Source of the DNA: a virus | Direction: 5' to 3' (one strand) | Length of the DNA: 64,000 nt | Virus record (IMG/VR): IMGVR_UViG_3300021375_000011 | Location: 56,836 to 120,835 of that record | Shown: in pieces, positions 2,917 through 43,439 of the stretch | Position numbering within the stretch: the stretch's first letter is position 1 | Layout: every line of letters begins with the position of its first letter | Position numbers and translations under genes: made by a program | Notes under the pieces: generated by a model | Told to the model about the DNA's origin: nothing | The model's database searches: none | Seen by the model: the letters and a program-made list of their open reading frames with translations, nothing else

Positions 2917-2933
2917 AGACTAGAGGAGTATAC

Positions 2934-11119: not shown

Positions 11120-14100
11120 ATGGCTAAAACTACAAGACAAACTAGTATATTTGGCGTTGAGGATTGGAAGAGAATTTACCAAACTTACCGTGAAGCAGAC
11201 TTTCAAAGTTATGATTTTGAAACACTGCGTAAAAGTTTTATAGATTATATACGTCTATACTACCCAGAAAGTTTTAATGACTATATTGAGTCAAGTGAAT
11301 TTATAGCACTGCTTGATGTTATGGCATTTATGGGACAAGCAGGTAGTTTTAGAAATGATCTAAACACTAGAGAGAACTTCATTGACACTGCTGAAAGACG
11401 TGACAGTGTCAATAGATTAGCAGAACTAGTAAGTTACACACCAAAGCGTAATACTGCGGCATCGGGCTTTTTAAAAGTACAAAGTATAAGCACCACAGAA
11501 GGCGTCATTGACTTTACTGGTGTAAATCTTTCAAACGTAACAGTAAACTGGAATGACACTACAAACGCAAACTGGCTAGAACAGTTTACAGTGATAGTAA
11601 ATGCGGCTTTAGATAATAGTCAACGTTTTGGTCGTCCTGGAAACAGTCAGACAATATTAGGCGTACAGACCGATGAATATGCACTTAACCTGATACAAGG
11701 GTTTTTACCAGTCATACCATTTACCAGTACAGTAAACGGAACATCAATGGGATTTGAGGCAGTATGTGCTACAACACAAGATGAAACATTTGTGTACGAG
11801 CCATCACCAGCTCCAAATGGTGCTTTTAATATTTTATATAGAAATGATAAACAAGGATATGCTAGTGCAAACACTGGCTATTTCTTCTTGTTCAAGCAAG
11901 GAAGTCTACAAGACTTAGATTTTAACTTGGGCGAGCGTATAAGCAACAGAGTTGTAAACGTAAACATAGAAGGTATTAACAATGAGGACACATGGTTGTA
12001 CCAACTTGATTCTCAAGGAAATATTACCAATGAATGGGACTATGTCGAAAACATTTACTCAGGCGCAGTTGAAGAACTAACTCCAGAACAACGTCGGTAC
12101 TTTACAATAAGTTCTCGAACAAATGATCAAATCAATTTAAACTTTGGAGATGGTGTGTTCAGTAGCATACCAGTTGGCAGTTTTAGAACTTATGTCCGTG
12201 CCAGTAACGGATTAAGTTATATTATCAATCAAGATGAGATGCAAAACGTAACCATCTCAATTGGCTATGTAAGTCGTACAGGTAGGAATGAAACACTTAC
12301 TTTTACATGTGCATTAACTCAACCAGTGAGCAATGCCGCCAACAGAGAAAATATTAACGATATAAAACAACGTGCTCCTGCAAGATATTACACACAAAAC
12401 AGAATGGTTAACGGAGAAGACTACAACAATTTTCCATATACACTTTATTCAACTATAATCAAGTCCAAGGCTGTTAATCGTAGCTCAATTGGTACTAGTA
12501 GATATTTGGATCTTGTAGATATCACTGGAAAATATTCAAGCACAAATGTTTTTGCTAGTGATGGATTAATATACGAAAACACCGCAGTACCTAGTTTTAC
12601 TTTCACATTTGTTGACCAAAATGATATTACAGATGTAATTGTAAATCAAGTCGAGCCGGTATTAGCAAGTCGTGGTATGCAAGAGTTTTATTATGAAAAC
12701 TTTACTCGACCAGACCTAGCAGTATTGAATTTAGACTGGAGTCAAAGCACAACCAGCAACAACGAAACCACAGGATTTTTTAGATTTGTCGCTAGCGGAG
12801 CGCCTGCACCGGTAGGACCGCAAGCAAGTGATAACAAAAAGTATATTGCACAAGGTGGATTAGTTAAATTTACACCTCCTGCAGGACAATATTTTACTGC
12901 TACGAATAGGTTAGCAGTTGGATCGCCAACGTTGCCTGGAGATAAAACAGTGTTATGGGCAACTGTAACTGCATTAGAACTTGACGGGACAAATCAAGGA
13001 GTCGGCAATAATGCAGATGGCACCGGACCTGTCACGCTAAACAATTTTATTCCTACTAACGCAGTACCAACTGAAGTTATTCCAAACTTTATTACAGATT
13101 TGCCAACTGCAATTGAAACCACAATGCGTGAAAACATTGAGTTATATAGAAATTTTGGGTTAGGATATGATAATCTAACAAGTACTTGGTATGTGATTAC
13201 TAGCACTAATATCAACAACGCAATAACATTTAGTTTAACATATGCACAGAATACATCAGGCACAGGACTGGATAATTCCTGGCTGGTTGATTTTACAACT
13301 GATGGAGTTACATATACAGTTAGCTCAAGAAGCCTACAACGCTTTTGGGCCAGTGTGTTAGAAACAAGATTCTTCTATGATGGCACACAGAAAGTATATG
13401 ATCCAAAAACCGGAACAGTTATAAATGACTTTATAAATGTGCTTAAAACAAACAACAAACCAGATTCAAGTACAACATTGAACAGTGATGAAGTATTAGA
13501 CATTATTGATCAACCTGTTGAAACTGATGGCTTTGTCGATGACTTTAGAGTGAGAATAAGTTACAAAGATTCAGACAATGATGGAATACCAGACAATCCA
13601 GACTACTTTACAGATCTTGTTGCTCCGACAGTGAATCCTAATAACAAAAGAATCTACTTGCAACAAACAGTTGACTTTGACAATTTAGAAAGATATTTGC
13701 CTCTCGCCTCTGGTGTAGTAATAGGAACGATTGCAACCAAAGATGCAATTGAACTTGTAAAAAGCGAGTATGCTGATAAACAAGTATTTTATGCATACAC
13801 CGATAAAAAGTTTTATCAGCTCACAGTTGATTATGAAGGTTTACGAACAATTACAGAGGTAACGGGTTATGATACCTATGTTGGCAGACAAGGATTATAT
13901 TTTCAATATCGTCATAACGCTCCATTAAGCAGACGTATTGATCCTGGAACAACAAATATTATTGACCTATATCTTGTAACACAATCTTATTATATTGCTT
14001 ATCAAAATTACATACGTGATAGTACAGGCACTGTTACAGAACCAGCAAAGCCTACAATAGATGAGTTAACAACCAGTTATAGTACACTAGATCAGTACAA

Positions 14101-14527
14101 GATGATAAGTGACAATATTATTTTGAATAGTATAACCTTTAAGCCACTATTTGGAACAAAGGCGTCAGTTGAACTACAAGCAACTATCAAGTGTGTGAAA
14201 AACACTGCAAGTACTGCTAGTGTAAGTGAAATTAAAAGTCAAGTTGTAAGTGCAATGAACACCTATTTTACAATAGAAAACTGGGATTTTGGTGATACGT
14301 TTTTCTTTAGTGAGCTTAGTGCATATCTGCATGATAGACTGGGAAGTATTATAAGTTCAGTGGTGTTAGTACCAACTGATCCTCTTAAATCGTTTGGAGA
14401 TTTATATGAAATACGTAGTCAAGCAAATGAAATATTTGTAAATGCTGCCACAGTTAATGATGTCCAAGTAATTGATGCACTAACAGGTAGCCAGTTAAGA
14501 ACTGCACCAAATAGCGGAGTAGTCTAG
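11120..14527 (+). CDS. 6: Baseplate wedge subunit gp6
   Basis: 1135 aa, longer than T4 gp6 (660 aa). The N-terminus shows the typical gp6 block: LRKSFIDYIRLYYPESFND, EFIALLDVMAFMGQAGSFRN and RDSVNRLAELVSYTPKRN. The C-terminus has NIILNSITFKPLFGTKASVE and an IENWDFGDTFFFSELSAYL-type segment, both characteristic of gp6/gpJ-like wedge proteins. In T4, gp6 forms the ring linking wedges. The gene lies between gp25 and a giant gp7-like gene, the order expected for T4-like phages. Confidence 0.88.
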   Translation: MAKTTRQTSIFGVEDWKRIYQTYREADFQSYDFETLRKSFIDYIRLYYPESFNDYIESSEFIALLDVMAFMGQAGSFRNDLNTRENFIDTAERRDSVNRLAELVSYTPKRNTAASGFLKVQSISTTEGVIDFTGVNLSNVTVNWNDTTNANWLEQFTVIVNAALDNSQRFGRPGNSQTILGVQTDEYALNLIQGFLPVIPFTSTVNGTSMGFEAVCATTQDETFVYEPSPAPNGAFNILYRNDKQGYASANTGYFFLFKQGSLQDLDFNLGERISNRVVNVNIEGINNEDTWLYQLDSQGNITNEWDYVENIYSGAVEELTPEQRRYFTISSRTNDQINLNFGDGVFSSIPVGSFRTYVRASNGLSYIINQDEMQNVTISIGYVSRTGRNETLTFTCALTQPVSNAANRENINDIKQRAPARYYTQNRMVNGEDYNNFPYTLYSTIIKSKAVNRSSIGTSRYLDLVDITGKYSSTNVFASDGLIYENTAVPSFTFTFVDQNDITDVIVNQVEPVLASRGMQEFYYENFTRPDLAVLNLDWSQSTTSNNETTGFFRFVASGAPAPVGPQASDNKKYIAQGGLVKFTPPAGQYFTATNRLAVGSPTLPGDKTVLWATVTALELDGTNQGVGNNADGTGPVTLNNFIPTNAVPTEVIPNFITDLPTAIETTMRENIELYRNFGLGYDNLTSTWYVITSTNINNAITFSLTYAQNTSGTGLDNSWLVDFTTDGVTYTVSSRSLQRFWASVLETRFFYDGTQKVYDPKTGTVINDFINVLKTNNKPDSSTTLNSDEVLDIIDQPVETDGFVDDFRVRISYKDSDNDGIPDNPDYFTDLVAPTVNPNNKRIYLQQTVDFDNLERYLPLASGVVIGTIATKDAIELVKSEYADKQVFYAYTDKKFYQLTVDYEGLRTITEVTGYDTYVGRQGLYFQYRHNAPLSRRIDPGTTNIIDLYLVTQSYYIAYQNYIRDSTGTVTEPAKPTIDELTTSYSTLDQYKMISDNIILNSITFKPLFGTKASVELQATIKCVKNTASTASVSEIKSQVVSAMNTYFTIENWDFGDTFFFSELSAYLHDRLGSIISSVVLVPTDPLKSFGDLYEIRSQANEIFVNAATVNDVQVIDALTGSQLRTAPNSGVV

Positions 14528-14528
14528 T

Positions 14529-17500
14529 ATGGCTAAGCGTATACGCTCAGAAGATTTCTTACCAGAAATATTTCAAACACCTGCTAACAAGCAGTTGTTA
14601 CGTAGTACACTGGATCAACTTACACAAAATCCAAAACTTAAACCTACTGAAGGTTACATTGGGCGTAAGATTGGCCCTGGCGTCACTGCATCAGACAGTT
14701 ATGTGCTTGAGCCGACAACAACACGTAGCAATTATCAATTGGAACCGGGAGTTGTACAAACAAACGACAACGGTACTGAAGTTTTAAACACTATTACCTA
14801 TCCGGGTATAATTGACAGTTTACAATTACAAGGTGCAAATACTACACGGCATGACAGATTATTTGACAGTGAATATTATAGTTTTGATCCAATGGTTGAT
14901 TTTGACAAATATGTCAACTTTGGACAGTATTACTGGGTACCAGCTGGTCCTGATAGTGTAAGTGTATTTGCAAATGCAATTCCTATACGTGCGGACTATG
15001 ATGTAAAATATGTAAACACAGGTTATACATTTTCAGGATATGCAGGCACGTTACCTACAATTAATCTTGCTAGGCAAGGTGAGTATAATTTTAACGTAAG
15101 CGATAGTGGGCGTAATTTTTGGATTCAAAGTCAACCTGGTACAAGCGGTGTCCTATCACAACAACCAAACCAAAGCTCAAGAGAAGTATTAGGTGTAACA
15201 AACAACGGCGATGACTTTGGCACAGTGACATTTAACGTTCCAAGTAATACTGCACAAAATTTTTATTTTACACTTGCTGATATCGGAAGCACAGATTTAC
15301 TCGAAGACACATTACAGTTCAATCAAATTAACAATGTGTTTGTTGATGTGTTTTTAGAAGAGCATGGCGGCATTGACGGCATCACTGACTTACAAGATCG
15401 TACACTTATTATTACCACTGATACTGACACTGGTTGGGAAATACTTACTCCGTTTGATGATACATTGTTTGACCAAGACGACCCTGGTATACCTAATCCA
15501 GGCTTTGACAATAGTGTAGCGTTGGCAACTGACCCAGAGCGTTATGTGCAATGGAGAATAAGTTACAACTATGAAAATCCAACACGTCCTTTTATGGAAC
15601 TTACAAAAGTACAAGACATTGCAAATCTAAGCAAAAGCATTATCAACTATGGTACAGACTATGCTGGCGTAACTTTTTACAAAAATGCTGATGGTGTATT
15701 TGAAAGACAACCTCTTATCACTGCAAACTTAGATATACTTTACTATCAAGATGCAAGTGATGAATTAAATTTTGGCATAATAAGATTAGTTGATCAAGCA
15801 AACATTTCAGATTTGAATGTTGACGAAGATATTGTTGGAAAGAAAACGTATACGTCACCAAACGGAGTTATTTTTACTAATGGATTGAAAGTTGAATTCA
15901 CAGGACAAATTGTTCCTGCAAGTTACGAAGGAAATCAATATTATGTAGAAGGTGTTGGAACTGCAATTGAATTACTTCCAGTAACTGATTTTGTAACTCC
16001 TGAAACCTATACTATAAGTGCAAGTGTTCCTTTTGACAGTTTATCCTTTGACGAAGGTGGATATGATGCAACTTCTAATGCTCCTACTGCACAAGATTAT
16101 ATGTTAATAAACAGAGCTAGTCTTGATCAAAATGCATGGAGTCGTGGCAACAGATGGTTTCACATAGATGTATTAAGTGCTACTGCAACATATAACAATG
16201 TTGCCTTGGACATAGATAACAATGCTAGAGCCAAACGACCAATACTTGAATTTAGAAAAAGTTTAAAATTATTCAACTATGGAACCCTAGCAACAGAGCC
16301 AGTTGATATTATTGATTTTACACAAACAAACGCTTTTCAAAATGTCAACGGAAGCATAGGTTACAGTGTTGATGGATACACACTTATACAAGGCTCAAGA
16401 ATTATATTTGCCAATGATAGTGATCCACAAGTTAAAAATAAAATCTATACTGTAAATTTTGTAGACTTTGAAGACAGTAGTGTAAAGACAATTGATCTAC
16501 AGGCTGCTAGTCTAACATCACCAGAAGTACCAACAAACACAAATGTTGTTGTGCTAAGTGGTACTACTGAACAAGGAAAAAGTTATTGGTTCAACGGAAC
16601 AACATGGGTAAGTGGGCAACAAAAAACTGATACAAATCAACCACCACTTTTTGATGTATACGATGCAAACGGTTATAGTCTCAGTGATACATCAGTGTAT
16701 CCTAGTACAACATTTATAGGAACAAAAATATTCAGTTACGCAGTTGGAACTGGCGCCACTGACACCATTATTGAACAACCTTTGAAATATTTTTCAATCA
16801 GTAATGTTGGAGATATTGTATTTGATAATAACTTATATACAGATACATTTACCTACGTAAAAAATGCAACAAGTTCAACACAAAAAATTGACACAGGTAT
16901 TATTCGACAGTACGATACAATATCAACTTTTGATAAGTTACTTGGATGGCAAACACATTTTGATACAAGTGTACAACGCCAAAGTTTTACTTTTGATTAT
17001 GCAGGTATTCCGTTAGTTTTAGATGTGCCAGTTATTACAGATACTGCAAAAATACCTGTAAAAGTTTTTGTTGACGGACAGTTTGTACTTGCAAACACAT
17101 ATACCTATACTACCAATACAGACAACGTCACTGTAATTACTTTCAATGCAAATGTTGTAGGACAACCTGCTACTGAGCCTGCAACAGGTGCAGTGGTTGA
17201 AATTCAAGTTATAAGCAACAGTGCAAGTACAATTGGTTTTTATACTATTCCTAGTAACTTAGAATCAAACGCTTTGAACAAGAACAGTGAAAATTTTACA
17301 CTTGGAACTGTACGTACACACTATGAAAGTATTTGTCAAAACTTAGAAGAGTTTAGTGGTAAGATACACGGATCAAATAATGTACGTGATCTTGGCAATG
17401 TTGTACCATATGGCAATTTAATATTACAACAAAGTGCGCCACTAACAATGACTACTCCGTTTATTAACGGCAGAGAGTTTGAGTACTTCCGTGCATTAGA

Positions 17501-20500
17501 ATTTAACAGTCAAGAATATGCAAAAACTAAAAACAAAATTTTAGATTTTGTTGCAAATAACGATTGGTCAGGTAAAACTACTGCAACCATATTAGACACT
17601 ACCTTACTATCTGTAAACGCCGGAAAGACTGCAAATGCACCATTTTATTGGACTGATGCAATTCCAAGTGGTAACGAATTTGAAACAACAACATATACTT
17701 TTAGTCCTATATCAACATATGTGTTTGACACTCTTTACAGTTATGATTTTACAAGTGCCAATTACAACGGCATATTAGTTTATCTCACTCCAAAAAGCAC
17801 TGGCATACAAACTATATTAGTTGGAGATGGTGACGAATACACAGTAGCCACCGATGGTCCTCGTATTACAATTAACAGTGAAAAGATCACGCTGGAAAAT
17901 GATGATATTATTACCATTCGCGAATATACTGCAACTTATGGAAGTTATATTCCAGCCACTCCGAGTATGCTTGGACTTTACCCAGTGTATCTTCCGCAAT
18001 CGTTTGTGGACAACACTTATGTGACTCCTACAACTGTTATTCAAGGTCATGATGGAAGTTTAACCGTTGCTTGGGAAACTGGCGATTACAGAAACGATGT
18101 ATTACTTGAATTAGAAAAACGTATCTACAACAATATTAAAATTAGTGTTGCTGAAAAGTACGATCCACCGTTAAGATCTAGCGATGTCATACCTGGACAG
18201 TTCAGAACAACGGCGTACACGCTTACAGAAATAAACAACATATTAAACACCAGTTTCCTTGCATGGGTTGGTGCTAACCGTGTGCCATATAAAGATCAAA
18301 CATATAATGCTGATGATCAGTTTACATGGAATTATAGTAACAGTCAAAACAGACTAGATGGAGATCCACTGTTAGGGTTCTGGAGAGGCATATATTTTGA
18401 TCTCTATGACACTGATAGTCCACATACACGTCCATGGGAAATGGTAGGACTTAGTGTTGAGCCAAGTTGGTGGAATACTAGATATGGTCCAGCACCCTAT
18501 ACAAGTGGTAACACTGTATTATGGGACGATATGGCAAAAGGAATTATTGCATACCCAACAGGTAATGTTGTAGTAGAAGATTTTGTTCGTCCACAATTGC
18601 TCGAGTGTTTACCAACAGATTCACAAGGTAATCTTGTAAGTCCAATGCAAAGTATTGTTGGTAGTTACGATTCAGGCAGTTTTGTAAAAAGTTGGATAGC
18701 AGGTGATTATGCTCCAACACAGACTGCGTGGAGAAGAAGTAGTAATTATCCCTTTGCAATACAGAGATTATTAGCACTTACAGAACCAGCAAAATATTTT
18801 AGTTTGTTTGCTGACAGAGACCTATACAAATACAACACAGATTACAATCAATATTTGTACAACGATAGATTTAGAATTGAATCATCAGAACTTGTAATTT
18901 ATGGCAACGGAACCAGTAAGAATAGTTACATAAATTTTGTTGTAGACTACAATAGAGTAACAGGTATAGATAGCACTGTTGTGGTTACAGACAAACTGGC
19001 TAATCTTGATGTTAGATTATGCTATAGAATGGCTAGTTTTAGTGATAAGTCATACCTAAAGATTTTTAGCGAAAAGTCATCGCCAAATAGTTTAAACAGT
19101 AGTTTGCTTTTACCAGATGAGAGTTACAATTTATTTTTATATAAAAATCCTAGTTTTGCTGAAATACAATTTAGTGCAGTAACAGTACAAAGAACAAGTG
19201 CAGGATATTCAGTATCAGGTTACTCAACAACAAAGCCATATTTTGAAATACTACAAAGTGTTCCAACTGGCAAATTTACTAGTATAGACGTAAATGGACA
19301 ACAGAGCAGAATTAATAATTCTTATAGCGACAATGTTGTGCAAGTGCCTTATGGATATACTTTTACAAGCACTAATGCAGTTGTAGATTTCCTTAGCAGT
19401 TACGGAGCATTATTACAAAAGCAAGGATTGCAATTTGATAGCCAAGTTAATGATACAATTGTTAACTGGACACAGATGGCAAGAGAGTTTTTATACTGGG
19501 TAGGGCAAAGCTGGACAGTCGGTAGTTTAATCAATCTCAATCCTGGTGCAGATATACTAAAGTTACAACGTGACTTTGCAGTTGTTGAAAGTTTAAACAA
19601 TGAAAACATAAACGACATTATGCTTGATCAAAACTTTGAGCCTCTGTTTGGTAAGGACTATGCAGTAGAACGCTTGGACAACGAACTTAAACTTATAGGA
19701 CTAAACAATCAAACATTTAGTTTTCTGAATGCAAGATATACGTCCTACGAACACATTATTGTATTTGATAATGTAAGTATTTTTAATGATTTAATTTATA
19801 ATCCAGTCACTGGAGCAAGGCAGAACAGACTGTTGTTAAACGGCAACACTGTTTTTGATTGGAACGGTACACTTGATGCACAAGGATTTATTCTTAACCA
19901 AGATAATATCAAAGAATGGGTAGCAAATCAGTCTTACACAAAAGGACAGATTGTGTTGTACAAAGAAGCATACTGGAGTGCAACAAGATTGTTGTCACCA
20001 AATCCAGAATTTGTGTTTGCTGATTGGATCAAGAGTGACTACGATAAGATACAAACTGGATTATTGCCTAACATTGCAACTAAAGCAGATGCACTACGTG
20101 AAAACTATGATATCAACACTGCAAATTTAGAAAGCGATGCAACGTTACTAGGATTAGGACTAATTGGTTTCCGTCCAAGACAGTATATGCAGAACCTAAA
20201 CTTAGATGACATTTCGCAAGCAGGATTGTATTCACAGTTTCTAGGTACAAAAGGCACATTAGGTGCAGCGGAACAATTTAAATCTGCTAACCTCGGCAAA
20301 GAAGAAGCTGAATATGACATACGAGAGAACTGGGCAATACAACGTGGCATTTATGGAGCTAATGCAAATAGAAGTTACTTTGAGTTAAGATTAGACGAAA
20401 GCAAACTTCTTGGAAATCCAAGCACTGTTGCAGTTATAGACCCAGGTGAGATAACCACTGCAAATCAAGAAATATTATTAGAAAATATTTGGAAACAAAG

Positions 20501-23500
20501 TTATAAAATTACCAATAAGAATATACTGCCAACAGTTGGTACAATCCCTGATGATGTAGCACTTCCTACTGCAGGGTATGTAAACTATGATGATGTAGAT
20601 ATAAAAGTCTTTAACTTTGATGACTTAACCAATATTGCGGCTAATCTTGAAAACATTGCTATCGGAACAAACATATGGGTAGCAAAAGCAAATTCATATG
20701 ATTGGAACATTTATAGAAACAACTTAGTTAATGCACTGGTCACAACTGTAGTTGATAACCTAAACGGTACTTGTACATTTACATTTGATACAAATCATAA
20801 TTTGCTAACAGGCACTAGACTCGTTATAAAGTATTTTGACGTTGCAGTTGACGGTGCTTATATTATAGAAAGTGTTCCAAGTTTAAAGACTATCACAGTA
20901 ACACTTAGTTTGCCTGGAGAAACAACTTCTCTTACAGGAATCGGATTGACACTTGCTCTTGAAAGTGTGAGATTTGCACAAGCAAGTGATGTTGTGAATT
21001 CAACATTTGCAAATGCAATAGTGCCAGGCAACCAAGCATGGGTTGACGATTACGGTGATGGCAACTGGGCAGTACTACAAAAAATAAATCCATTTGGTAC
21101 CGCTACTGAATTAGATGCTGACACTCCGATACTTAATGACCTATATGGTACAACAGTTCAACAAGGAGTTACAGGTGGACTAGCAATTGGTGCACCAGGA
21201 TATGCAAGCGGAAAAGGTGCCGTATACTGTTACAATAAATCAGACACTGATACATACAAAGAAAACACAATTATGACACCTACTGCCGCTGGATTTGTAG
21301 GCACAGGCACAAGTTTAAGTGTTGGAACTATCGAACGTATAGTTGCAGGAGCACCTGCAAGTGATAGTAATAAAGGTTATGCAGTCGGTATAAGAAGAAA
21401 CAGTAGTAACGGCGAATATTCGCAGACACAATTGTTTAACACAGGAACAAATGATGTAGACAACTTTGGACAAGACGTTGCAGTAAGTGCAGATGAGCGT
21501 TGGTTGTACGTAAGTGCTCCAACAGCCACTGTTAGTGGCGATTATGTTTGGGCATATCAACAAGTTGGTGTGCAAAGTCAAACACTTAAATTTACTGGCG
21601 ATGCTACAACAACAGATTTTATTATTACAGGAACAATTGTTGTCAGTGCGGTAAATGCAACTGCACAAACACAAATAGCAGTAACCAGAAACAATGTATC
21701 ACAAACTGCTGGTAGTGATTATACAGTACAAACAAGTGGCACAAATCAAGTTGTAAGATTTGGAACTGCACCAAATGAGAATGATACTATTGTAATAACA
21801 AGACGTCAAGGTGTAACTTACCTACCTTCAGGATCAACTACGGCTTTTAGCACTGCTACCTTATTCACAGTCAATGACATTTACAGTTTTGCAGTTTACT
21901 ATAATGGTGCGTTGTTGCGTCCAATACACGATTATACATTTGCCGGCAATACTGTAACGTTGCTAGTAGCAATTAGCTCTGGCACACTACTAATTGATGC
22001 AAAAACATATTGGGATTTTGTAAAAACTATTAACACCGGTGGTAGTGTTGGTGACTTACCTGGGCAAAGCATATCCACTACAACAGATGGTAGACAAGTT
22101 ATCATTGGAGCACCTGGTGCTGAAGTTACTGTTGGATCTACCACAACAACTGATGCTGGTAAGGTGTACATTTATGACAGAAGTGTAGAGCGTTTCCAAG
22201 TTCAAACTGCATCAACAACCACACAAAGTTTTACAACATCTGACACACCCGAAGGCACACCAGCAGTAACAGTAAACGGAACATACCTAGTACCAACTGC
22301 ACAAAATAACAATGCAGAATTTAGTTTTAGCGGTACTACAATAACAATTGGAACTGCAACAAATCCGTACACACTTAATGTTGGTGACATTGTTGAGATC
22401 GAAACTAACAACTTTAGATTGGTTCAAACTATTAATTCGCCAACAGTAGGTGAAGCATACAATTTTGGTCAAGTGGTAGACATGTGTAGTACAAATTGTA
22501 GTCTATATATTGCAGAACCAAATGATAGTACAATCACAGAACAAGGCGGAAGTGTTGATAGGTGGATTAATCAATCCAGATTGTTTGGAACCATTACTGG
22601 TACTGTAACTAACCCAGTTTTAACTGCCACTGATAGTATAAGAATAAACAATTATTTTGTGACCTTAACTGGAACCACAGTTGCTAGTTTAGTAACTGAT
22701 ATCACCACTGCAGATTTGCCAAACATTAAGGCAACCGAAGTCAGTGGAGCATTACAAATTACACTTGTTGATGTACAAGCAGGTGAAGCATTTATAAAAC
22801 TACAAGTAGCACCAGGAGCAGGAACTGCGTTTGCAGATTTAGGACTCGCTCAAATGGTATTTGCACAAACTATTGTATCTCCGGTAGCACAACAGTTTGG
22901 GCATTTTGGACAAAGCCTTAAAATTGATAGCACTGCAACAACCTTAGTTGTTGGTGCTCCAGATGCTACTGCTAACTTGCCAACCACGTTTGATAGCAAT
23001 ACAACATATTTTGATAGTAAAAGCACACTGCTAATTGATCCTTTAGAGGAATCAGGCGTAGCATATACCTATAACTTTTTAAACGCCGCCAATGCAAGTG
23101 CAACCAATACAGGCAAGTTTGTTTTTGGACAACAGATTTACGATACAAGCATGGTAAGTTTTGATAAGTTTGGTAGTGCAGTTGATTATTATGCCGGAGT
23201 ATTATTAGTCGGAGCACCAAACGATGATTTAAATGATAGTTCCGGTGATTATGGAAGAGTAACACAACTTGTTAATGCAAACAAAGAAAGTGCATGGAAA
23301 ATTGTTTACAATCAGCAACCAATGGTCAACAGTGCTCTGCTTAACAGTGTGTTTACATATGATAAAGTAAGTAACGAAGTAGATACATATTTAGATTTCA
23401 TTGATCCACTACAAGGTAAAATACTAGGAGCGGCGAGTGCTAATATAAACTATCAAGGTGGTATTGATCCTGCAGCCTACAACACTGGCACAGTAAACAA

Positions 23501-26500
23501 TTTTGGTTCGCAGTGGAGAGATGAGTACTTAGGACACTTTTGGTGGGATTTAAGCACAGTTAGATTCATTGATTATCATCAAGACACTATAGAATACAAA
23601 GCAAGACGTTGGGGACAACTGTTTCCAGGTTCGTCAGTTGATGTCTATCAATGGACTAAGAACAGTGTTGCACCAGCAAACTACACAGGACCAGGCACAG
23701 TTTATACAACTGATAGTTACGTTGTAACCAGCGAGCTTGATAGTGCAGGAACATTTGTTTCAAATTATTATTATTGGGTCAAAGGATTATCTGCAGTTCC
23801 AACTGGCAAAACACTTAGTTCAAATGCTATTACACAATACATATCTGATCCGAGATCAAGTGGCGTATCATACAGTGCGGCATTAAGTCAAAACACAATT
23901 GGTTTATACAATGTACGTACACAATTGGTTGGGACAGACACTATACTGCACGTTGAATTTGATAAACTAGAAAACACTGATGCAGTACACAGTGAATATG
24001 ATTTAATCACTGACAATGATCCTAACAGTTTCTTAGGCACAGGACTTTACAGAAAGTTTTTAGATAGTTATTGTGGAGTTGATACACTTGGTAACAATGT
24101 GCCAGATCCTACTTTGAGCCCTGCTGACAAATATGGTGTAAGTTTCCGTCCAAGACAAAGTTTCTTTATAGATAGATTTCTTGCACTTGAAAATTATATG
24201 ACACGTGCAAATAGGATAATGAAACTGTATCCTATATCAGAAGACAAAAGTTTTAAATTACTAAACAGTTCAGATCCAGAACCAACAAGCGTAAGTGGTT
24301 TGTGGGATAAACGTGTGTTAACCTATGCAGAACTTACGTATCAAGATCTAAATCAAGTAGCAGTTGGTTATAACTATTTGGTAGCAAGTGACAGTACCCA
24401 AGAAGGACTATGGACAATATATACTGTAATTGCTGGACCTAGTTTACAGTTAGCAAGAGTACAAAACTATGATACACAACTATATTGGAGTTATGTAGAT
24501 TGGAATGGCTTAAATGCTGATGGAACAACCTACAGTAGTGCAAATGCTAGTGCTTACGAAGTAGAAGTGTATAGTAATCTACTTGCACTCGAAGATGTGC
24601 CAAATCAATCATGGGCTACCGTTGAATCAAACAGTTTTGGAAAGAAAGAAGTCTATCAGTATAGCACAACAACTGGTGAGTGGACAAGAGTTTTCTTAGA
24701 AGATGGAACCATTGCAGTTGACAAAACAATTTGGGATTATTCAGTTGGAAATTTTGGCTTTGATGTTGAAGCATTTGATGCACAAAGATTTGCACAAGCG
24801 CCTGATGTTGAAACAAGACAAATACTTAAAGCATTAAACGAAGAAATTTTTGTAAACGAACTAAAGATATTCAGGAACGAACTTCTAATACTTACATTTG
24901 AATTTATTATGAGTGAACAACCTGCTCCAGACTGGTTGATTAAGACATCACTGATTGATGTCAATCATAAAATACGTGACCTAATAGAATATCCAATTTT
25001 TAGAAGAGACAATCAGGATTTTGTAAGTCAATACATAGAAGAAGTAAAACCATATCATGTACAAGTTAGAGAATTTAACTTACGCTATGAAGGCGAGGAT
25101 ACTTACAACGGTAGTATTACAGACTTTGATCTTCCTGCATATTATGATGCATTGCGAAATCAATTTGTTTCGCCTATACTAGATGATAGCGAATTTCCAA
25201 CATCACTAAGTGCAGTACCAAGTACTTCTAGCGTATGGACTACATTTCCATGGAGCCAATGGTACAACAATTATAAACTTATTGTAAAAGAAGTTAAAGT
25301 TCTAAATGGCGGAAGTGGTTACACTGTACCTCCGCAAGTGGTAGTGACAGGTGATGCAACGACACAAGCAACAATGACTGCAACTGTAAACACTGCTGGT
25401 GTAGTAACCGGAATTACCGTAGACACTCTAGGAAGTGGTTATATAACTACGCCAACATTAACAATATCAGGTGGCAACGGAACAGGCGCAACTGCGGTAG
25501 TGGTGTTAGAACCACAACAGGTACGTGACTTTAAAACAACAGTCAAGTATGACAGAATTACATACACCAGTCAAGTGTTAGATTGGACTGCAAGTACTGT
25601 ATACACTGCTGGTCAATTAATTCGATATCCGGTACCAACACTTGGAGTTGTAAACGTTAGTTTGCCAGAAGTTTATAGTGTAAATTTTAATTTTACAAGT
25701 GGCACAGTATTTGATCCTGACAACTATACTAAAGTTGATCAATCAACACTAGATGGTGCAGACAGAACTATTGGATTATATACTCCAGAGCCAAATGAAC
25801 CAGGACGTGAACTAGCACAAGTGATGACAGGTATAGACTATCCTGGCGTACAAGTTCAAGGTCCAAACTTTAATCAGAATACTGGATATGATGTTGGAAA
25901 CTTTGACATAAATCCATTTGATAACATAGATTTTGGTCCAGAAGGATTACCAACATATGATCCTGCAATACTTGACGTCATTTACGAAAGTGAATTTACA
26001 GACACATACTTAGGTGTCCGTGCAACAGACATTAATGTAGTAGGTGGCGCTTTTATAGATACCTATAGTTCACATGCTCCTGAAGAACTTATACCTGGAA
26101 GCGAATTTGACACACTTGATCTAAAAGTTTACACACGTCCAGGCAGTGATTGGAGCAGTGACGGACACGGCTTTAACATTGCAACAATAAATGTTGTGTT
26201 TAACGGAGCCGGAACAACACTTGATTTTACAAGTGCAATGCTACATCCAGTTGGCATAGAAGTAATTGATATTACAAGTGGACAAAGCATTACAAACACT
26301 GCATACACAATTGACTGGGTAAACAAAGTAGTTACACTCGGTGCAACTATGCCAAGTGCAATTGGAAGTAATATTGCAATTAAGATTTATGGCCTAGGTG
26401 GCGGTTCACAGATTTACAAAGAAAGCATTGTTGGAAGTGATATTACTAGTAATGTTGCAACCATTCCAGTAGTGTTCTCTGAGATTAACCAAATGGTAAT

Positions 26501-28124
26501 TTTTGTTAATGGTACAATAATATCAGACTATGCGTTTGCCGCTAGTGGTAGTTTTGCTACTGCAATTACATTTACAAGCACATATGGTGCTAGTGATTGG
26601 ATTACTTTTGGTGTACTAGGAGCAACAACACCTGTACAATATTCATGGAGCACTCCATTAGTACAGTATATCACATACGATGGTTCAAGTTTACTCGATC
26701 CACTAACAAACAGTTTAGGTGGTACAAACCAGGCAAACATGGTTGTACAACGTGAAGGATTAAGACTTCGTCCGCCAGAAGGTATTGAATACACCGGTGA
26801 TGGTTCAAGTGCAGGTCCTTATTACATAAGCACCACTGGCATCAGTAATCAAGGTTTAGTTGCAGATAATGATCTATTGGTTTATGTTGATAATGTAAGG
26901 AAAAATTTAGCAGTCGATTGGAACCTAAGTGCATGGGATGGATCAAGCGATAGATATGTTGAATTTACAACTGCTAGTATGCCTCCTGCTAATAGTGATA
27001 TTAAGATTTTCACAACAACTGAAGCAGATTATATTTTACTTGGCGATCAGTTAGATTTACGTGTTAGTGCTGCCGCTAACGCAACATTCGCAGTGTACAC
27101 CTACAATGATACTGCTCAACAAAACATACTTACAAAAGTATTTGTTGGACCAACTACTACAGGTATTACAACAGGAGTTGCATACGACGAAGATGCTTAT
27201 GATGCAAGTGAATTTGATGAAACTGTTGGTACAACCATTGATACAAACAACTTTGCACTTGGCAGACTTGTAGACAGTCCTGAAAGACTTATAGTTACAT
27301 TAAACGGAACATTTATTAGTCAATCAGAATATGATTTAACCACAGGCACTGATAACAAAACCACATTGGTATTGGATAGAAATGTTATTAATGCTGCCGA
27401 CGTGTTAGCAGTAACTATGTTTACAAACACAGTGGTTCCAAACAGCTTAAACTTTAGAATCTTTCAAGACATGTTAGGCAATCAAAAGTTGCTAAGAATG
27501 AATACGCAAAATACAACACAACTTGCACAAGATCTTGCAATTGACGATATAGAAATTCATCTACAAGATGCAAGTAAACTTAGCGAGCCTGATTTAGATA
27601 ACAATATTTTTGGACAACTTATGGTTGGTGGTGAACGAATTACATACAGAGTGAGAGACTTAGGCAATAATACTGTTAGCGATCTCAGACGTGGTACTGC
27701 AGGCACAGGAGTCTATGCACATGCAACAGGAACCAGTGTAAGCGACGTGGGCCCAGGAGAGCAACTTCCTGCAACATATCAACAAAAAACAACAACTGAT
27801 AAAACAAATGTTGGTGATGGTACAACTACTAGATTTACAACAAGTATAATAGTACCAACTGGCTTAGACAGTACAGAACTTGCTGAATCAATTACAGTCA
27901 CAGTTGCTGGTACAGTGCTTGTACCAGACACAGATTACACAATCACTGCAACAGATAGTGCGTTTACAGAAGTAACACTTACAACACCACCACTTGCAAA
28001 TGTGGAAGTTTGGTTCAGTCAAGTTACTGCTAAAGTAATGTACGCACAAGGTAGTGGTACTGCAAGTAACGGCATTCCGTTACAAGATCAAACAACACCA
28101 GCAGTAACATTCTTAAAGAGTTAA
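14529..28124 (+). CDS. Giant baseplate wedge/structural protein (gp7 position) with FG-GAP-like propeller region
   Basis: 4531 aa, more than four times T4 gp7 (1032 aa). It starts two bases after gp6. The N-terminus (YSFDPMVDFDKYVNFGQYYW at about 115-140) resembles large wedge proteins of marine T4-like phages. Between about residues 2215 and 2900 there are seven GAP-type motifs (IGAPG, VAGAPAS, VSAPTA, IIGAPGA, IAEPND, VVGAPDA, VGAPNDD), most preceded by an FGQ/FGS strand start. This is the signature of FG-GAP propeller blades. Around 3593-3661 lies a GSGYT-x-PP repeat pair. The C-terminal 900 residues contain several copies of a VxVNG...DYT strand module. It is one uninterrupted frame, so I see no sign of decay. 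gp7 identity rests on gene order. Confidence 0.65.
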   Translation: MAKRIRSEDFLPEIFQTPANKQLLRSTLDQLTQNPKLKPTEGYIGRKIGPGVTASDSYVLEPTTTRSNYQLEPGVVQTNDNGTEVLNTITYPGIIDSLQLQGANTTRHDRLFDSEYYSFDPMVDFDKYVNFGQYYWVPAGPDSVSVFANAIPIRADYDVKYVNTGYTFSGYAGTLPTINLARQGEYNFNVSDSGRNFWIQSQPGTSGVLSQQPNQSSREVLGVTNNGDDFGTVTFNVPSNTAQNFYFTLADIGSTDLLEDTLQFNQINNVFVDVFLEEHGGIDGITDLQDRTLIITTDTDTGWEILTPFDDTLFDQDDPGIPNPGFDNSVALATDPERYVQWRISYNYENPTRPFMELTKVQDIANLSKSIINYGTDYAGVTFYKNADGVFERQPLITANLDILYYQDASDELNFGIIRLVDQANISDLNVDEDIVGKKTYTSPNGVIFTNGLKVEFTGQIVPASYEGNQYYVEGVGTAIELLPVTDFVTPETYTISASVPFDSLSFDEGGYDATSNAPTAQDYMLINRASLDQNAWSRGNRWFHIDVLSATATYNNVALDIDNNARAKRPILEFRKSLKLFNYGTLATEPVDIIDFTQTNAFQNVNGSIGYSVDGYTLIQGSRIIFANDSDPQVKNKIYTVNFVDFEDSSVKTIDLQAASLTSPEVPTNTNVVVLSGTTEQGKSYWFNGTTWVSGQQKTDTNQPPLFDVYDANGYSLSDTSVYPSTTFIGTKIFSYAVGTGATDTIIEQPLKYFSISNVGDIVFDNNLYTDTFTYVKNATSSTQKIDTGIIRQYDTISTFDKLLGWQTHFDTSVQRQSFTFDYAGIPLVLDVPVITDTAKIPVKVFVDGQFVLANTYTYTTNTDNVTVITFNANVVGQPATEPATGAVVEIQVISNSASTIGFYTIPSNLESNALNKNSENFTLGTVRTHYESICQNLEEFSGKIHGSNNVRDLGNVVPYGNLILQQSAPLTMTTPFINGREFEYFRALEFNSQEYAKTKNKILDFVANNDWSGKTTATILDTTLLSVNAGKTANAPFYWTDAIPSGNEFETTTYTFSPISTYVFDTLYSYDFTSANYNGILVYLTPKSTGIQTILVGDGDEYTVATDGPRITINSEKITLENDDIITIREYTATYGSYIPATPSMLGLYPVYLPQSFVDNTYVTPTTVIQGHDGSLTVAWETGDYRNDVLLELEKRIYNNIKISVAEKYDPPLRSSDVIPGQFRTTAYTLTEINNILNTSFLAWVGANRVPYKDQTYNADDQFTWNYSNSQNRLDGDPLLGFWRGIYFDLYDTDSPHTRPWEMVGLSVEPSWWNTRYGPAPYTSGNTVLWDDMAKGIIAYPTGNVVVEDFVRPQLLECLPTDSQGNLVSPMQSIVGSYDSGSFVKSWIAGDYAPTQTAWRRSSNYPFAIQRLLALTEPAKYFSLFADRDLYKYNTDYNQYLYNDRFRIESSELVIYGNGTSKNSYINFVVDYNRVTGIDSTVVVTDKLANLDVRLCYRMASFSDKSYLKIFSEKSSPNSLNSSLLLPDESYNLFLYKNPSFAEIQFSAVTVQRTSAGYSVSGYSTTKPYFEILQSVPTGKFTSIDVNGQQSRINNSYSDNVVQVPYGYTFTSTNAVVDFLSSYGALLQKQGLQFDSQVNDTIVNWTQMAREFLYWVGQSWTVGSLINLNPGADILKLQRDFAVVESLNNENINDIMLDQNFEPLFGKDYAVERLDNELKLIGLNNQTFSFLNARYTSYEHIIVFDNVSIFNDLIYNPVTGARQNRLLLNGNTVFDWNGTLDAQGFILNQDNIKEWVANQSYTKGQIVLYKEAYWSATRLLSPNPEFVFADWIKSDYDKIQTGLLPNIATKADALRENYDINTANLESDATLLGLGLIGFRPRQYMQNLNLDDISQAGLYSQFLGTKGTLGAAEQFKSANLGKEEAEYDIRENWAIQRGIYGANANRSYFELRLDESKLLGNPSTVAVIDPGEITTANQEILLENIWKQSYKITNKNILPTVGTIPDDVALPTAGYVNYDDVDIKVFNFDDLTNIAANLENIAIGTNIWVAKANSYDWNIYRNNLVNALVTTVVDNLNGTCTFTFDTNHNLLTGTRLVIKYFDVAVDGAYIIESVPSLKTITVTLSLPGETTSLTGIGLTLALESVRFAQASDVVNSTFANAIVPGNQAWVDDYGDGNWAVLQKINPFGTATELDADTPILNDLYGTTVQQGVTGGLAIGAPGYASGKGAVYCYNKSDTDTYKENTIMTPTAAGFVGTGTSLSVGTIERIVAGAPASDSNKGYAVGIRRNSSNGEYSQTQLFNTGTNDVDNFGQDVAVSADERWLYVSAPTATVSGDYVWAYQQVGVQSQTLKFTGDATTTDFIITGTIVVSAVNATAQTQIAVTRNNVSQTAGSDYTVQTSGTNQVVRFGTAPNENDTIVITRRQGVTYLPSGSTTAFSTATLFTVNDIYSFAVYYNGALLRPIHDYTFAGNTVTLLVAISSGTLLIDAKTYWDFVKTINTGGSVGDLPGQSISTTTDGRQVIIGAPGAEVTVGSTTTTDAGKVYIYDRSVERFQVQTASTTTQSFTTSDTPEGTPAVTVNGTYLVPTAQNNNAEFSFSGTTITIGTATNPYTLNVGDIVEIETNNFRLVQTINSPTVGEAYNFGQVVDMCSTNCSLYIAEPNDSTITEQGGSVDRWINQSRLFGTITGTVTNPVLTATDSIRINNYFVTLTGTTVASLVTDITTADLPNIKATEVSGALQITLVDVQAGEAFIKLQVAPGAGTAFADLGLAQMVFAQTIVSPVAQQFGHFGQSLKIDSTATTLVVGAPDATANLPTTFDSNTTYFDSKSTLLIDPLEESGVAYTYNFLNAANASATNTGKFVFGQQIYDTSMVSFDKFGSAVDYYAGVLLVGAPNDDLNDSSGDYGRVTQLVNANKESAWKIVYNQQPMVNSALLNSVFTYDKVSNEVDTYLDFIDPLQGKILGAASANINYQGGIDPAAYNTGTVNNFGSQWRDEYLGHFWWDLSTVRFIDYHQDTIEYKARRWGQLFPGSSVDVYQWTKNSVAPANYTGPGTVYTTDSYVVTSELDSAGTFVSNYYYWVKGLSAVPTGKTLSSNAITQYISDPRSSGVSYSAALSQNTIGLYNVRTQLVGTDTILHVEFDKLENTDAVHSEYDLITDNDPNSFLGTGLYRKFLDSYCGVDTLGNNVPDPTLSPADKYGVSFRPRQSFFIDRFLALENYMTRANRIMKLYPISEDKSFKLLNSSDPEPTSVSGLWDKRVLTYAELTYQDLNQVAVGYNYLVASDSTQEGLWTIYTVIAGPSLQLARVQNYDTQLYWSYVDWNGLNADGTTYSSANASAYEVEVYSNLLALEDVPNQSWATVESNSFGKKEVYQYSTTTGEWTRVFLEDGTIAVDKTIWDYSVGNFGFDVEAFDAQRFAQAPDVETRQILKALNEEIFVNELKIFRNELLILTFEFIMSEQPAPDWLIKTSLIDVNHKIRDLIEYPIFRRDNQDFVSQYIEEVKPYHVQVREFNLRYEGEDTYNGSITDFDLPAYYDALRNQFVSPILDDSEFPTSLSAVPSTSSVWTTFPWSQWYNNYKLIVKEVKVLNGGSGYTVPPQVVVTGDATTQATMTATVNTAGVVTGITVDTLGSGYITTPTLTISGGNGTGATAVVVLEPQQVRDFKTTVKYDRITYTSQVLDWTASTVYTAGQLIRYPVPTLGVVNVSLPEVYSVNFNFTSGTVFDPDNYTKVDQSTLDGADRTIGLYTPEPNEPGRELAQVMTGIDYPGVQVQGPNFNQNTGYDVGNFDINPFDNIDFGPEGLPTYDPAILDVIYESEFTDTYLGVRATDINVVGGAFIDTYSSHAPEELIPGSEFDTLDLKVYTRPGSDWSSDGHGFNIATINVVFNGAGTTLDFTSAMLHPVGIEVIDITSGQSITNTAYTIDWVNKVVTLGATMPSAIGSNIAIKIYGLGGGSQIYKESIVGSDITSNVATIPVVFSEINQMVIFVNGTIISDYAFAASGSFATAITFTSTYGASDWITFGVLGATTPVQYSWSTPLVQYITYDGSSLLDPLTNSLGGTNQANMVVQREGLRLRPPEGIEYTGDGSSAGPYYISTTGISNQGLVADNDLLVYVDNVRKNLAVDWNLSAWDGSSDRYVEFTTASMPPANSDIKIFTTTEADYILLGDQLDLRVSAAANATFAVYTYNDTAQQNILTKVFVGPTTTGITTGVAYDEDAYDASEFDETVGTTIDTNNFALGRLVDSPERLIVTLNGTFISQSEYDLTTGTDNKTTLVLDRNVINAADVLAVTMFTNTVVPNSLNFRIFQDMLGNQKLLRMNTQNTTQLAQDLAIDDIEIHLQDASKLSEPDLDNNIFGQLMVGGERITYRVRDLGNNTVSDLRRGTAGTGVYAHATGTSVSDVGPGEQLPATYQQKTTTDKTNVGDGTTTRFTTSIIVPTGLDSTELAESITVTVAGTVLVPDTDYTITATDSAFTEVTLTTPPLANVEVWFSQVTAKVMYAQGSGTASNGIPLQDQTTPAVTFLKS

Positions 28125-33821: not shown

Positions 33822-34737
33822 TGTTGCTGATTTAGATTGTATATACTTGAGCTATGACGAGCCCAAAAAAGAAGAATTTTGGGTAAAAATACGCAACATG
33901 GTTCCGTGGGCTAAACGTGTAGATGGAGTACATGGATCAGATGCGGCACACAAAGCGGCTGCTGACGCAAGCGATACAGAACGTTTTATACTAATTGATG
34001 GCGATAACTTGCCACAAGAAAGTTTTTTCAACGAAACGATCGAATACAAAACAGATCAGTACGAACAAGCAGTGTACAGATGGCGTGCCCGCAACGATAT
34101 AAACGGACTTATGTATGGCAACGGAGGTATTAGCTCATGGACAAAAACGTTTGTACAAAACATGCGTACACACGAAGCAAGTGCGGGTGCAGATGAAACT
34201 GACGTAGAATTTTGCTTTGATGATCTATATTGGCCAATGTACAACTGCTATTCAACTACATATCCTGGAGAAAGTGCAAAACATGCTTTCCGTGCAGGCT
34301 TTAGAGAAGGCGTAAAGATGTGCCTTGATAAAGGTACCAAGCCCAGTGCAAGTGCGTTTAAAGAAAGTGTACATAATAGAAACTTAGATCATTTAACCAT
34401 ATGGCACAATATAGGTGCAGATACAGAACACGGACTATGGGCTATTGCAGGATCAAGACTTGGAACATATAAAACAATGTTGCAGAAGGATTGGAACTAT
34501 AAAGACGTACAAGACTTTGCAAAGTTGGATGCTATATGGGAAGATGTAAAACATCTAGCACCTGGTGAATTAGTAAGTATCAAAGCCGATGATCTTGCTA
34601 GACAACTATCTTTACCAATGAATATCCTTACACCAGTACAAAGTAAGTTTTTTAAACATCATTATCGCAGTAATTGGCACAATCAAGATATTATGACACG
34701 CGAAATTGATGTGATACGGAGCCAAGAAGGATGGTAA
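33814..34737 (+). CDS. Glycosyltransferase-like protein, related to the third module of the 55.0-56.8 kb protein
   Basis: 307 aa from the ATG at 33814, overlapping the previous stop; the longer upstream frame lies wholly inside the secreted-protein gene and is unlikely. The N-terminus (DLDCIYLSYDEPKKEEFW) and RVDGVHGSDAAHKAAADAS are followed by LIDGDNLP, a DxD-like motif (D62, D64). Then come RARNDINGLMYGNGGI and KHAFRAGFREGVKM. The same order (ISNGE, VDGVKGRAEAYRASLEAS, NPVNGLEYGHMAMI, WRSAFRECLKL) appears in the 595-aa protein at 55000-56787, so the two share a domain. A nucleotide-sugar-dependent role is plausible but unproven. Confidence 0.55.
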   Translation: MIDVADLDCIYLSYDEPKKEEFWVKIRNMVPWAKRVDGVHGSDAAHKAAADASDTERFILIDGDNLPQESFFNETIEYKTDQYEQAVYRWRARNDINGLMYGNGGISSWTKTFVQNMRTHEASAGADETDVEFCFDDLYWPMYNCYSTTYPGESAKHAFRAGFREGVKMCLDKGTKPSASAFKESVHNRNLDHLTIWHNIGADTEHGLWAIAGSRLGTYKTMLQKDWNYKDVQDFAKLDAIWEDVKHLAPGELVSIKADDLARQLSLPMNILTPVQSKFFKHHYRSNWHNQDIMTREIDVIRSQEGW

Positions 34738-35807
34738 AAGAACTTTTTGCTGATCTCAGCAAAGATTACAAATATACAATGAATGCAATGCCTCGTGGCA
34801 AAGATGAACAAAAATCAGTTTCTTTTGCCTGTAATTTGCCACATAAAGTAGTAAGCATCGATGACAACTTAAATTGCATACTTTGTATTTGCGATGGTTG
34901 GTTGCCTATACCTGTTGGACAAGTGCAAGACTTTACAAGTTTACCTGAGATTTTTTCAAGCCCAAAAGCAAAAATTTTGCAAGCTGATATTGATGCTAAA
35001 ACCTATACATGGTGTGCAGTGCAAAATTGTGGAATTAAGCATCATAATGTTTTAAGATCTGATTATCAAGTGGTTATTAATATTGACAGGAGTTGTAATC
35101 TGCAATGTCCTAGCTGTCGGCGAGATAAATTTATGTTGACGTCTGGATCTCTGTATGATAAAAAAATAGCCGCGGCAAACCAAATACTTAACTGGTTGGA
35201 TCAGCTTGACGAACCGATCGATATTGTAACAAGCGGTGATGGTGACCCTCTTGCAAGTCTTGTTATGCGTCCATTAATAAAAAATTGGAAGTTTAAACCA
35301 AAGCAGAAGATAACAATAAAAACAAACGGCATGTTAATAAAAAAACAATTGCAAAATACTGAAATGTTACGCAGTGCTCGTTTCAGTATTAGTGTTGATG
35401 CTGGCAGCAAAGATGTGTTTGAAAAAATTAGACTCGGCGGAAACTGGAAAATATTATTAGATAATTTTGACTTCTTAGTTAAAAACAAGAAACAAAAATT
35501 TACATTTTTAAATTTTACTCTACAAAAAGATAACTATCGTGATTTAGAAAACTTTGTGAAATTATGCGAACACTACCAATTTTGTGGCGCAGTGTCAAAA
35601 CTTTGTGATTGGGGGACTTGGAATCTGCAAGATGTTTCACAACCAGATGAGTGGACTCAAAAAAACGGTTACTTTTATGAACATGATGTGTTACAATTAG
35701 AACATGCTAATTATAAAGAAGCCGCGTCAATTTGTACCCAGTTTTTAGATCATCCATTGGTATACATTGATACATCAGTGAGAGAAAAGTTGTATGAAGC
35801 AAAATAA
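34731..35807 (+). CDS. Radical SAM protein with N-terminal Cys-rich domain
   Basis: 358 aa. The CxxxCxxC motif that binds the catalytic [4Fe-4S] cluster is at C122, C126 and C129 (SCNLQCPSCRR). The N-terminal 110 residues carry further cysteines (C34, C50, C52, then C95 and C100) and GWLPIPVGQV, resembling a SPASM-like auxiliary-cluster domain placed before the core. A TSGDGDPL motif at about 162-169 stands where GGE normally follows. The core continues with ITIKTNGMLIKKQL and FSISVDAGSKDVFEKIRLGG, typical radical-SAM strands. Substrate unknown. First of seven radical-SAM genes; it overlaps its neighbours by 7 and 14 bases. Confidence 0.85.
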   Translation: MVKELFADLSKDYKYTMNAMPRGKDEQKSVSFACNLPHKVVSIDDNLNCILCICDGWLPIPVGQVQDFTSLPEIFSSPKAKILQADIDAKTYTWCAVQNCGIKHHNVLRSDYQVVINIDRSCNLQCPSCRRDKFMLTSGSLYDKKIAAANQILNWLDQLDEPIDIVTSGDGDPLASLVMRPLIKNWKFKPKQKITIKTNGMLIKKQLQNTEMLRSARFSISVDAGSKDVFEKIRLGGNWKILLDNFDFLVKNKKQKFTFLNFTLQKDNYRDLENFVKLCEHYQFCGAVSKLCDWGTWNLQDVSQPDEWTQKNGYFYEHDVLQLEHANYKEAASICTQFLDHPLVYIDTSVREKLYEAK

Positions 35808-37224: not shown

Positions 37225-37238
37225 AAATAATTATACAT

Positions 37239-43418: not shown

Positions 43419-43439
43419 AAACAAATAGAGTTACTTAAA

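What the first reader, a model, noticed from the sequence alone, without database searches (positions are those of the whole stretch)
21170..23230. FG-GAP-like beta-propeller inside a giant baseplate protein
Seven GAP-type motifs (IGAPG, GAPAS, SAPTA, IGAPGA, AEPND, VGAPDA, VGAPNDD) recur over about 690 residues, mostly 25-35 residues after an FGQ/FGS start. Known: FG-GAP repeats make seven-bladed propellers in integrins and adhesins. Seven motifs fit one full propeller with insertions. An adhesin-type propeller on a phage baseplate could contact the host or the tail fibres.
Basis: partly seen in the sequence, partly recalled or inferred. Interest (0 to 1): 0.62.

Follow-up and report, generated by a model that had tools for sequence, protein, structure and literature searches.

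The report
Integrin-like propeller in phage baseplate protein
A large family of uncultured aquatic giant phages carries a complete seven-bladed propeller, of the fold that animal integrins use for adhesion, plugged into a hairpin turn of a giant baseplate protein; cultured relatives lack it there, which suggests an add-on contact module for host or tail fibre (the contact itself is not shown).

Summary
The propeller is real. Residues ~2187-2928 of the 4,531-aa ORF at 14529-28124 match Pfam FG-GAP_2 above cutoff. AlphaFold2 (54-sequence alignment, pLDDT 88, pTM 0.89) gives seven four-stranded blades, with each of the seven GAP-like motifs at the end of a strand B. Best structural matches are integrin alpha propellers (Z 25.0, 2.7 A over 357 residues).

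The host protein is the RaK2-type giant virion protein (phrog_10938) encoded directly after gp6. The propeller is an insertion into one beta-hairpin turn: relatives without it have a short turn there (WAVYTY-NGST-WTRTRQ). Of 246 distinct homologues sampled, 217 show propeller blades and 29 none. On a tree presence changes about twice: once at the clade holding every cultured relative examined, once as a nested loss (one contig). Blades 1-2 and two insert domains evolve faster than the flanks; nothing is hypervariable.

Likely role: a peripheral contact module (host glycan/protein, or tail fibre) that the baseplate can do without. Fold and insertion are shown by computation; function is inferred.

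The parts
14529..28124 (+). Giant virion structural (baseplate) protein, 4531 aa, that carries the propeller; phrog_10938 family
   Evidence: ORF; phrog_10938, 1007 bits; homologues in RaK2, PA5oct, Atu_ph07 and others
11120..14527 (+). gp6-like baseplate wedge subunit immediately upstream, ending 1 base before the giant ORF
   Evidence: phrog_10646, 926 bits
21087..23306 (+). Complete seven-bladed FG-GAP (integrin alpha type) beta-propeller with inserted domains, residues ~2187-2926
21069..21083 (+). First strand (WAVLQ, residues 2181-2185) of the split parent hairpin, just before the propeller
23295..23312 (+). Second strand (WKIVYN, residues 2923-2928) of the split parent hairpin; also the last strand of blade 7 in the model
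21153..21275 (+). Blade 1 (GAP motif IGAPG)
21312..21437 (+). Blade 2 (GAP motif AGAPAS)
21477..22031 (+). Blade 3 (SAPTA), with two small all-beta domains between strands C and D (insert 21582-21998)
22068..22436 (+). Blade 4 (IGAPGA), with one small all-beta domain between strands C and D (insert 22218-22379)
22476..22874 (+). Blade 5 (AEPND), with one alpha/beta domain between strands C and D (insert 22590-22850); invariant Cys-x3-Cys
22914..23138 (+). Blade 6 (VGAPDA), long B-C loop
23178..23312 (+). Blade 7 (VGAPNDD), the repeat that Pfam scores best

Best explanation
Residues ~2187-2928 form one seven-bladed beta-propeller of the FG-GAP/integrin-alpha type. It has been grafted into the turn of a beta-hairpin of a conserved giant baseplate protein that is encoded at the position of T4 gene 7, after gene 6. 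Because both ends return to the same hairpin, the propeller hangs from the baseplate on a two-strand stem and can be gained or lost without disturbing the parent protein. Its most likely job is a contact module at the baseplate periphery that binds a surface ligand of the (unknown, aquatic) host or holds a tail fibre. Shown by computation: the fold, blade count, motif placement, graft site, spread over the clade, one apparent natural loss, mild acceleration of blades 1-2 and two insert domains. Inferred: peripheral exposure, the contact function and its ligand.
For: AF2 model with seven blades, pLDDT 88.3, pTM 0.89. Integrin alpha propellers are the top structural matches: VIA Z 25.0, rmsd 2.7 A, 357 aligned; Foldseek E 1.1e-9. 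FG-GAP_2 in 53 of 54 relatives. The PHROG profile of the parent protein skips the propeller: 1,150 residues align to 428 columns. Insert-free homologues have a short hairpin turn where the others carry the propeller; in 173 of 226 occupied sequences both hairpin halves are found, split mostly at the same place (model positions ~20-22 / 24-26). AF2 of the insert-free L210 shows that hairpin, strands 539-543 and 548-553. L210 is nested among propeller carriers, sister to L215, support 0.998 and 1.0. Synteny gp5-like/gp6-like/giant and MS detection of homologues (PA5oct gp355; phage CBB gene next to its gp6, PMC5259590). Blades 1-2 and the inserts of blades 3 and 4 are 13-15 points less identical to the window than the flanks in 78 relatives. 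Precedents for propellers on baseplates: phi11 RBP and PhiKZ gp131C (PMC4901313).
Against: No ligand, host or virion position is known. The variation is mild, with no hypervariable face, and top-face loops (D-A 2.08, B-C 1.80 bits) are not clearly more variable than bottom-face ones (A-B 1.58, C-D 2.16), so a fast host-driven arms race is not visible. The propeller has no DxDxDG calcium motif in the window. The apparent loss rests on a single contig. Equivalence to T4 gp7 is by position only; profile comparison finds nothing.
Confidence: 0.6

Rival explanations
1. The propeller is a protein-protein docking platform inside the particle: it holds whiskers or a neighbouring wedge subunit and never touches the host.
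For: Blades 4 and 6 evolve nearly as slowly as the flanks; A-B loops of blades 3-5 are among the most conserved (0.75-1.28 bits); the propeller is retained almost throughout a large clade with few gains or losses. Integrin propellers themselves dock a partner subunit (own knowledge).
Against: A homologue nested in the clade lacks it with an intact ORF (L210), and all cultured relatives examined lack it here, so it is not needed to build the baseplate; blades 1-2 and the inserts of blades 3 and 4 change faster than the flanks.
Confidence: 0.3
2. The propeller is an enzyme (glycan hydrolase or lyase) that clears a path through host surface polymers.
For: Other phage propellers are enzymes (endosialidases, noted in PMC4901313); the small barrel just upstream of the hairpin in L210 resembles the barrel of phage endosialidases (Z 8-10 over ~80 residues).
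Against: No catalytic family is matched above its cutoff by Pfam in the window; the closest solved propellers are non-enzymatic integrins; the barrel match is of a common small fold and also hits ubiquitin-activating enzymes.
Confidence: 0.07
3. The motif recurrence is chance or low-complexity repetition with no propeller.
For: The repeats are weak: only 1-4 stretches pass in Pfam and some blades lack FG.
Against: High-confidence seven-bladed model, curated family hits in 53 of 54 relatives, and structural match Z 25.
Confidence: 0.01

Closest known systems
Integrin alpha-subunit FG-GAP beta-propeller (e.g. alphaM, alphaV, alphaIIb)
   Same: Seven blades, motif at end of strand B in every blade, whole-domain structural match (Z 25.0, 2.7 A over 357 residues)
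   Different: Sequence identity in the structural alignment ~16-20%; no DxDxDG calcium loops in the window; inserts sit between strands C and D of blades 3-5; carried by a phage baseplate protein, not a membrane receptor. A few relatives have an extra insert between blades 2 and 3, the loop that holds the I domain in some integrins (own knowledge); read here as analogy only
PhiKZ gp131 C-terminal seven-bladed propeller at the baseplate periphery (PDB 4GBF, as told in PMC4901313)
   Same: Seven-bladed propeller attached to a jumbo myophage baseplate; receptor binding or enzymatic role only conjectured
   Different: There the C-terminal domain of a different protein; here an internal graft in the giant protein after gp6; homology between the two propellers was not tested
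Staphylococcus phage phi11 receptor-binding protein (PMC4901313)
   Same: Baseplate propeller proposed to bind host wall GlcNAc
   Different: Five-bladed, trimeric, separate RBP of a siphophage
RaK2-group giant virion structural protein (phrog_10938; RaK2 ORF070, PA5oct gp355, GAP32 gp230, Atu_ph07 gp180)
   Same: Same gene position and conserved along residues 1-2180 and 2930-3530
   Different: None of the eight cultured homologues examined has the propeller at this site; they have a short turn or unrelated sequence
Free-standing phage FG-GAP propellers: S-TIM5 gp054, Atu_ph07 gp320
   Same: FG-GAP-type propellers of about 400 aa in phages; S-TIM5 gp054 is annotated as a virion structural protein
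   Different: Separate genes, not grafted into the baseplate giant

Membership tests
Pfam PF14312 FG-GAP_2 | Score above the curated gathering cutoff of 23 bits | tested here: met
   29-37 bits for the window protein, depending on the segment given; 53 of 54 relatives match at E<=1
FG-GAP / integrin alpha-type seven-bladed propeller | Seven four-stranded blades in one domain | tested here: met
   AF2 model with seven sets of four strands, pTM 0.89; whole-length alignment to integrin alpha
FG-GAP / integrin alpha-type seven-bladed propeller | GAP motif at the end of strand B of each blade | tested here: met
   Motifs at model residues 102-104, 155-157, 210-212, 408-410, 543-545, 690-692, 776-778; strands B end at 103, 156, 210, 409, 544, 691, 777
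FG-GAP / integrin alpha-type seven-bladed propeller | FG motif opening each repeat | tested here: inconclusive
   FG in blades 3, 5, 6, 7 and YG in blade 1; blades 2 and 4 degenerate
Integrin alpha proper | DxDxDG calcium-binding loops in the last blades | tested here: not met
   None in the window propeller; among relatives L176 and L269 have one ahead of a GAP motif
phrog_10938 (RaK2-type giant virion structural protein) | Profile match over the conserved parts and gene order after gp6 | tested here: met
   1007 bits, E 3e-302; gp6-like gene upstream in the window and in RaK2, PA5oct, Atu_ph07, PBECO4, GAP32
T4 gp7 baseplate wedge protein | Detectable homology to T4 gp7 | tested here: inconclusive
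   Same gene position, but profile comparison gives probability 1.6% and 0.3% and PDB profile searches find nothing
PhiKZ gp131-type baseplate propeller | Structural or sequence homology to 4GBF | not tested
   Known from PMC4901313 only; no direct comparison made
Receptor-binding protein | Binds host surface | not testable with these tools
   Needs binding or adsorption experiments

The most novel reading that the evidence does not exclude
The hairpin turn of the giant baseplate protein is a socket for exchangeable contact modules: an integrin-type propeller in the large aquatic clade, GGxGYxxPxVxVxGG-type repeats or other domains in relatives (Atu_ph07, Phosso, SCTP-2, L183, L188), and nothing in others. 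If so, these jumbo phages carry a second host-recognition device built into the baseplate wedge itself, apart from tail fibres.
Probability: 0.3. Interest if true: 0.65.

Novelty: new variant of a known kind. Interest (0 to 1): 0.5.

Why it matters
Propellers on phage baseplates were known in a few isolates with unproven roles. Here one is tied to a defined graft site, with relatives lacking it as natural controls, across 217 distinct sequences from uncultured aquatic jumbo phages, none of them a cultured isolate examined here. That makes its role directly testable in principle, and it explains part of the extreme size of these proteins as nested domain insertion (domains inside blades inside a hairpin).

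Tried and rejected
No nucleotide match in the phage collection and no tblastn match of the window propeller in isolates: the sequence is too diverged or absent. No propeller relative in bacterial/archaeal genomes, so no provirus or donor was found by that search. Literature searches for FG-GAP, integrin-like or propeller together with phage baseplate terms found no description of this arrangement; the library is open-access only. T4 gp7 homology: not found by profile, and no T4 baseplate chain in the top Foldseek or VIA rows for the insert-free model. That model has pTM 0.55 and only its small barrel (414-502) was really tested, so this says little. Calcium sites: absent in the window; across relatives DxDxDG is about twofold above shuffles, but only 4 of 60 are followed by a GAP-like motif, two of them in a real blade context. 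A LamG-like look of the SCTP-2 insert was not confirmed by Pfam and is dropped. Searches failed on input format.

Full report
What was checked. The finding concerns residues ~2215-2900 of the 4,531-aa ORF at 14529-28124. The window is the last 64 kb of a 120,835-bp IMG/VR virus record.

Fold. Pfam FG-GAP_2 scores 29-37 bits against a cutoff of 23. Searching IMG/VR in three rounds gave a non-redundant set of 54 sequences including the window, the relatives at 36-89% identity over the whole region; 53 of the 54 match FG-GAP_2. AlphaFold2 on that alignment gives mean pLDDT 88.3 and pTM 0.89. Seven consecutive blades of four strands can be read off, and the seven motifs are each at the end of strand B. 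Blade 3 carries two small all-beta domains, blade 4 one and blade 5 one alpha/beta domain, all between strands C and D. Foldseek finds integrin alpha chains first (E 1.1e-9) and VIA-align gives Z 25.0, rmsd 2.7 A over 357 residues with integrin alphaM.

Host protein. The ORF belongs to phrog_10938 (1007 bits), the giant virion structural protein of the RaK2 group, and follows a gp6-like wedge gene (phrog_10646) as in RaK2, PA5oct, Atu_ph07, PBECO4 and GAP32. The PA5oct homologue is marked as detected by ESI-MS/MS. In phage CBB the product next to its gp6 was detected with 21 peptides (PMC5259590; that it is the homologue is inferred from gene order). Gene order places it where T4 has gene 7, but no sequence relation to T4 gp7 was found, so 'gp7 equivalent' is positional only.

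Graft site. The PHROG profile covers 1,150 window residues with only 428 columns, and aligned homologues of cultured phages show 230-1,560 residues between two conserved anchors where the window has 980. Insert-free homologues (L010 PA5oct, L180, L210, L255, L267, L270) read like WVDnG..GWAVYTY-NGST-WTRTRQQ..VD. In propeller carriers the same sequence is split after WAVLQ/WAVY and resumes at W-x-x-x-R/Y-x-Q-Q: with a small model of the insert-free hairpin, both halves were found in 173 of 226 occupied sequences, breaking mostly at the same model positions. The half matches are short and individually weak (a few bits each); their position and the agreement across sequences carry the argument. 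AlphaFold2 of the insert-free L210 (pLDDT 81, pTM 0.55; the local region is 84-94) shows two strands, 539-543 and 548-553, with a four-residue turn exactly there. The propeller therefore hangs from a hairpin turn with both ends side by side.

Distribution. Of 246 distinct homologous regions sampled, 217 gave at least one blade-model match and 29 none. On a 159-taxon tree of the flanking anchors (434 columns), presence/absence needs two changes: one at a fully supported clade of 23 without propeller, which holds all cultured relatives examined, and one at L210, nested in propeller carriers next to L215 (support 0.998 and 1.0). Root placement, and so gain or loss at the first change, is open. 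L210 is one contig with an intact ORF through the junction; no second contig with its junction was found in IMG/VR. None of RaK2, PA5oct, SCTP-2 or Vibrio 2.275.O has an FG-GAP_2 match anywhere in its record; Atu_ph07 has a free-standing 409-aa one.

Rates. Among 78 relatives, compared with the flanks, identity to the window is lower by 0.15 in blades 1-2, 0.14 in the blade 3 insert, 0.13 in the blade 4 insert, and 0.02-0.09 in the other blades and the blade 5 insert (sequences are related, so the p-values are not independent tests). Loop entropies show no hypervariable top face. This fits an exposed but not hypervariable module.

Mechanism. Shown by computation: complete integrin-type propeller, inserted at a hairpin turn of a conserved baseplate giant, nearly fixed in a large uncultured clade, dispensable in at least one apparent case. 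Inferred: display at the baseplate periphery and a contact function. I prefer the reading 'peripheral contact module, binding host surface or a fibre', at about 0.6 overall, with an internal docking platform as the main rival. The insert-free L210 and the faster blades favour the first; the conserved loops of blades 3-5 and near-fixation favour the second.

Relation to known things. Baseplate propellers are known: the phi11 receptor-binding protein (five blades) and PhiKZ gp131C (seven blades, periphery, role unproven), both described in PMC4901313. Free-standing FG-GAP propellers occur in S-TIM5 and Atu_ph07. What is new here is the internal graft into the giant post-gp6 protein, the site, the nested insertions and the spread. 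No paper describing it was found. I rate it a new variant of a known kind.

Noticed in passing
34731-51631: A run of at least seven radical-SAM/SPASM genes, then a methyltransferase, an S-adenosylmethionine synthetase and a carbamoyltransferase, a few kb downstream of the baseplate genes; looks like a modification/biosynthesis cluster. Radical-SAM genes also follow the giant gene in Atu_ph07 and Phosso.
   Followed up: partly
22476-22874 (model residues 534 and 538): Two cysteines (CSTNC) in the A-B loop of blade 5 are invariant in all 54 aligned sequences; possible disulfide or metal site.
   Followed up: no
L346:4519-5700 (Atu_ph07 gp320), L345:5803-6987 (Phosso), L344:5470-6693 (S-TIM5 gp054): Free-standing ~400-aa FG-GAP-type propeller genes in phages that lack the grafted one or belong to other groups; gp320 is annotated 'hemagglutinin' and Phosso has three such places.
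   Followed up: partly
L210 model residues 414-502 (about window residues 2060-2150 of the giant ORF): The small barrel just upstream of the graft hairpin resembles the barrel of phage endosialidases phi92/K1F (Z 8-10 over ~80 residues), but equally ubiquitin E1.
   Followed up: no
residues 1796-1817 of the giant ORF (19914-19979): Weak CBM_5_12 (chitin-binding-like) match, shared by six of nine homologues at E<=0.1 but below the Pfam cutoff in the window.
   Followed up: no
L029 and four other relatives, after model residue 185: Five relatives carry up to 74 extra residues between blades 2 and 3, the connection where some integrins hold their I domain (integrin comparison from own knowledge).
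   Followed up: no
L009, L013, L182, L183, L188, L217, L313: Propeller-free homologues with long sequence in the same interval show recurring GxGYxxxPxVxVxGGxGxGA-like repeats by eye, without Pfam match where tested.
   Followed up: partly
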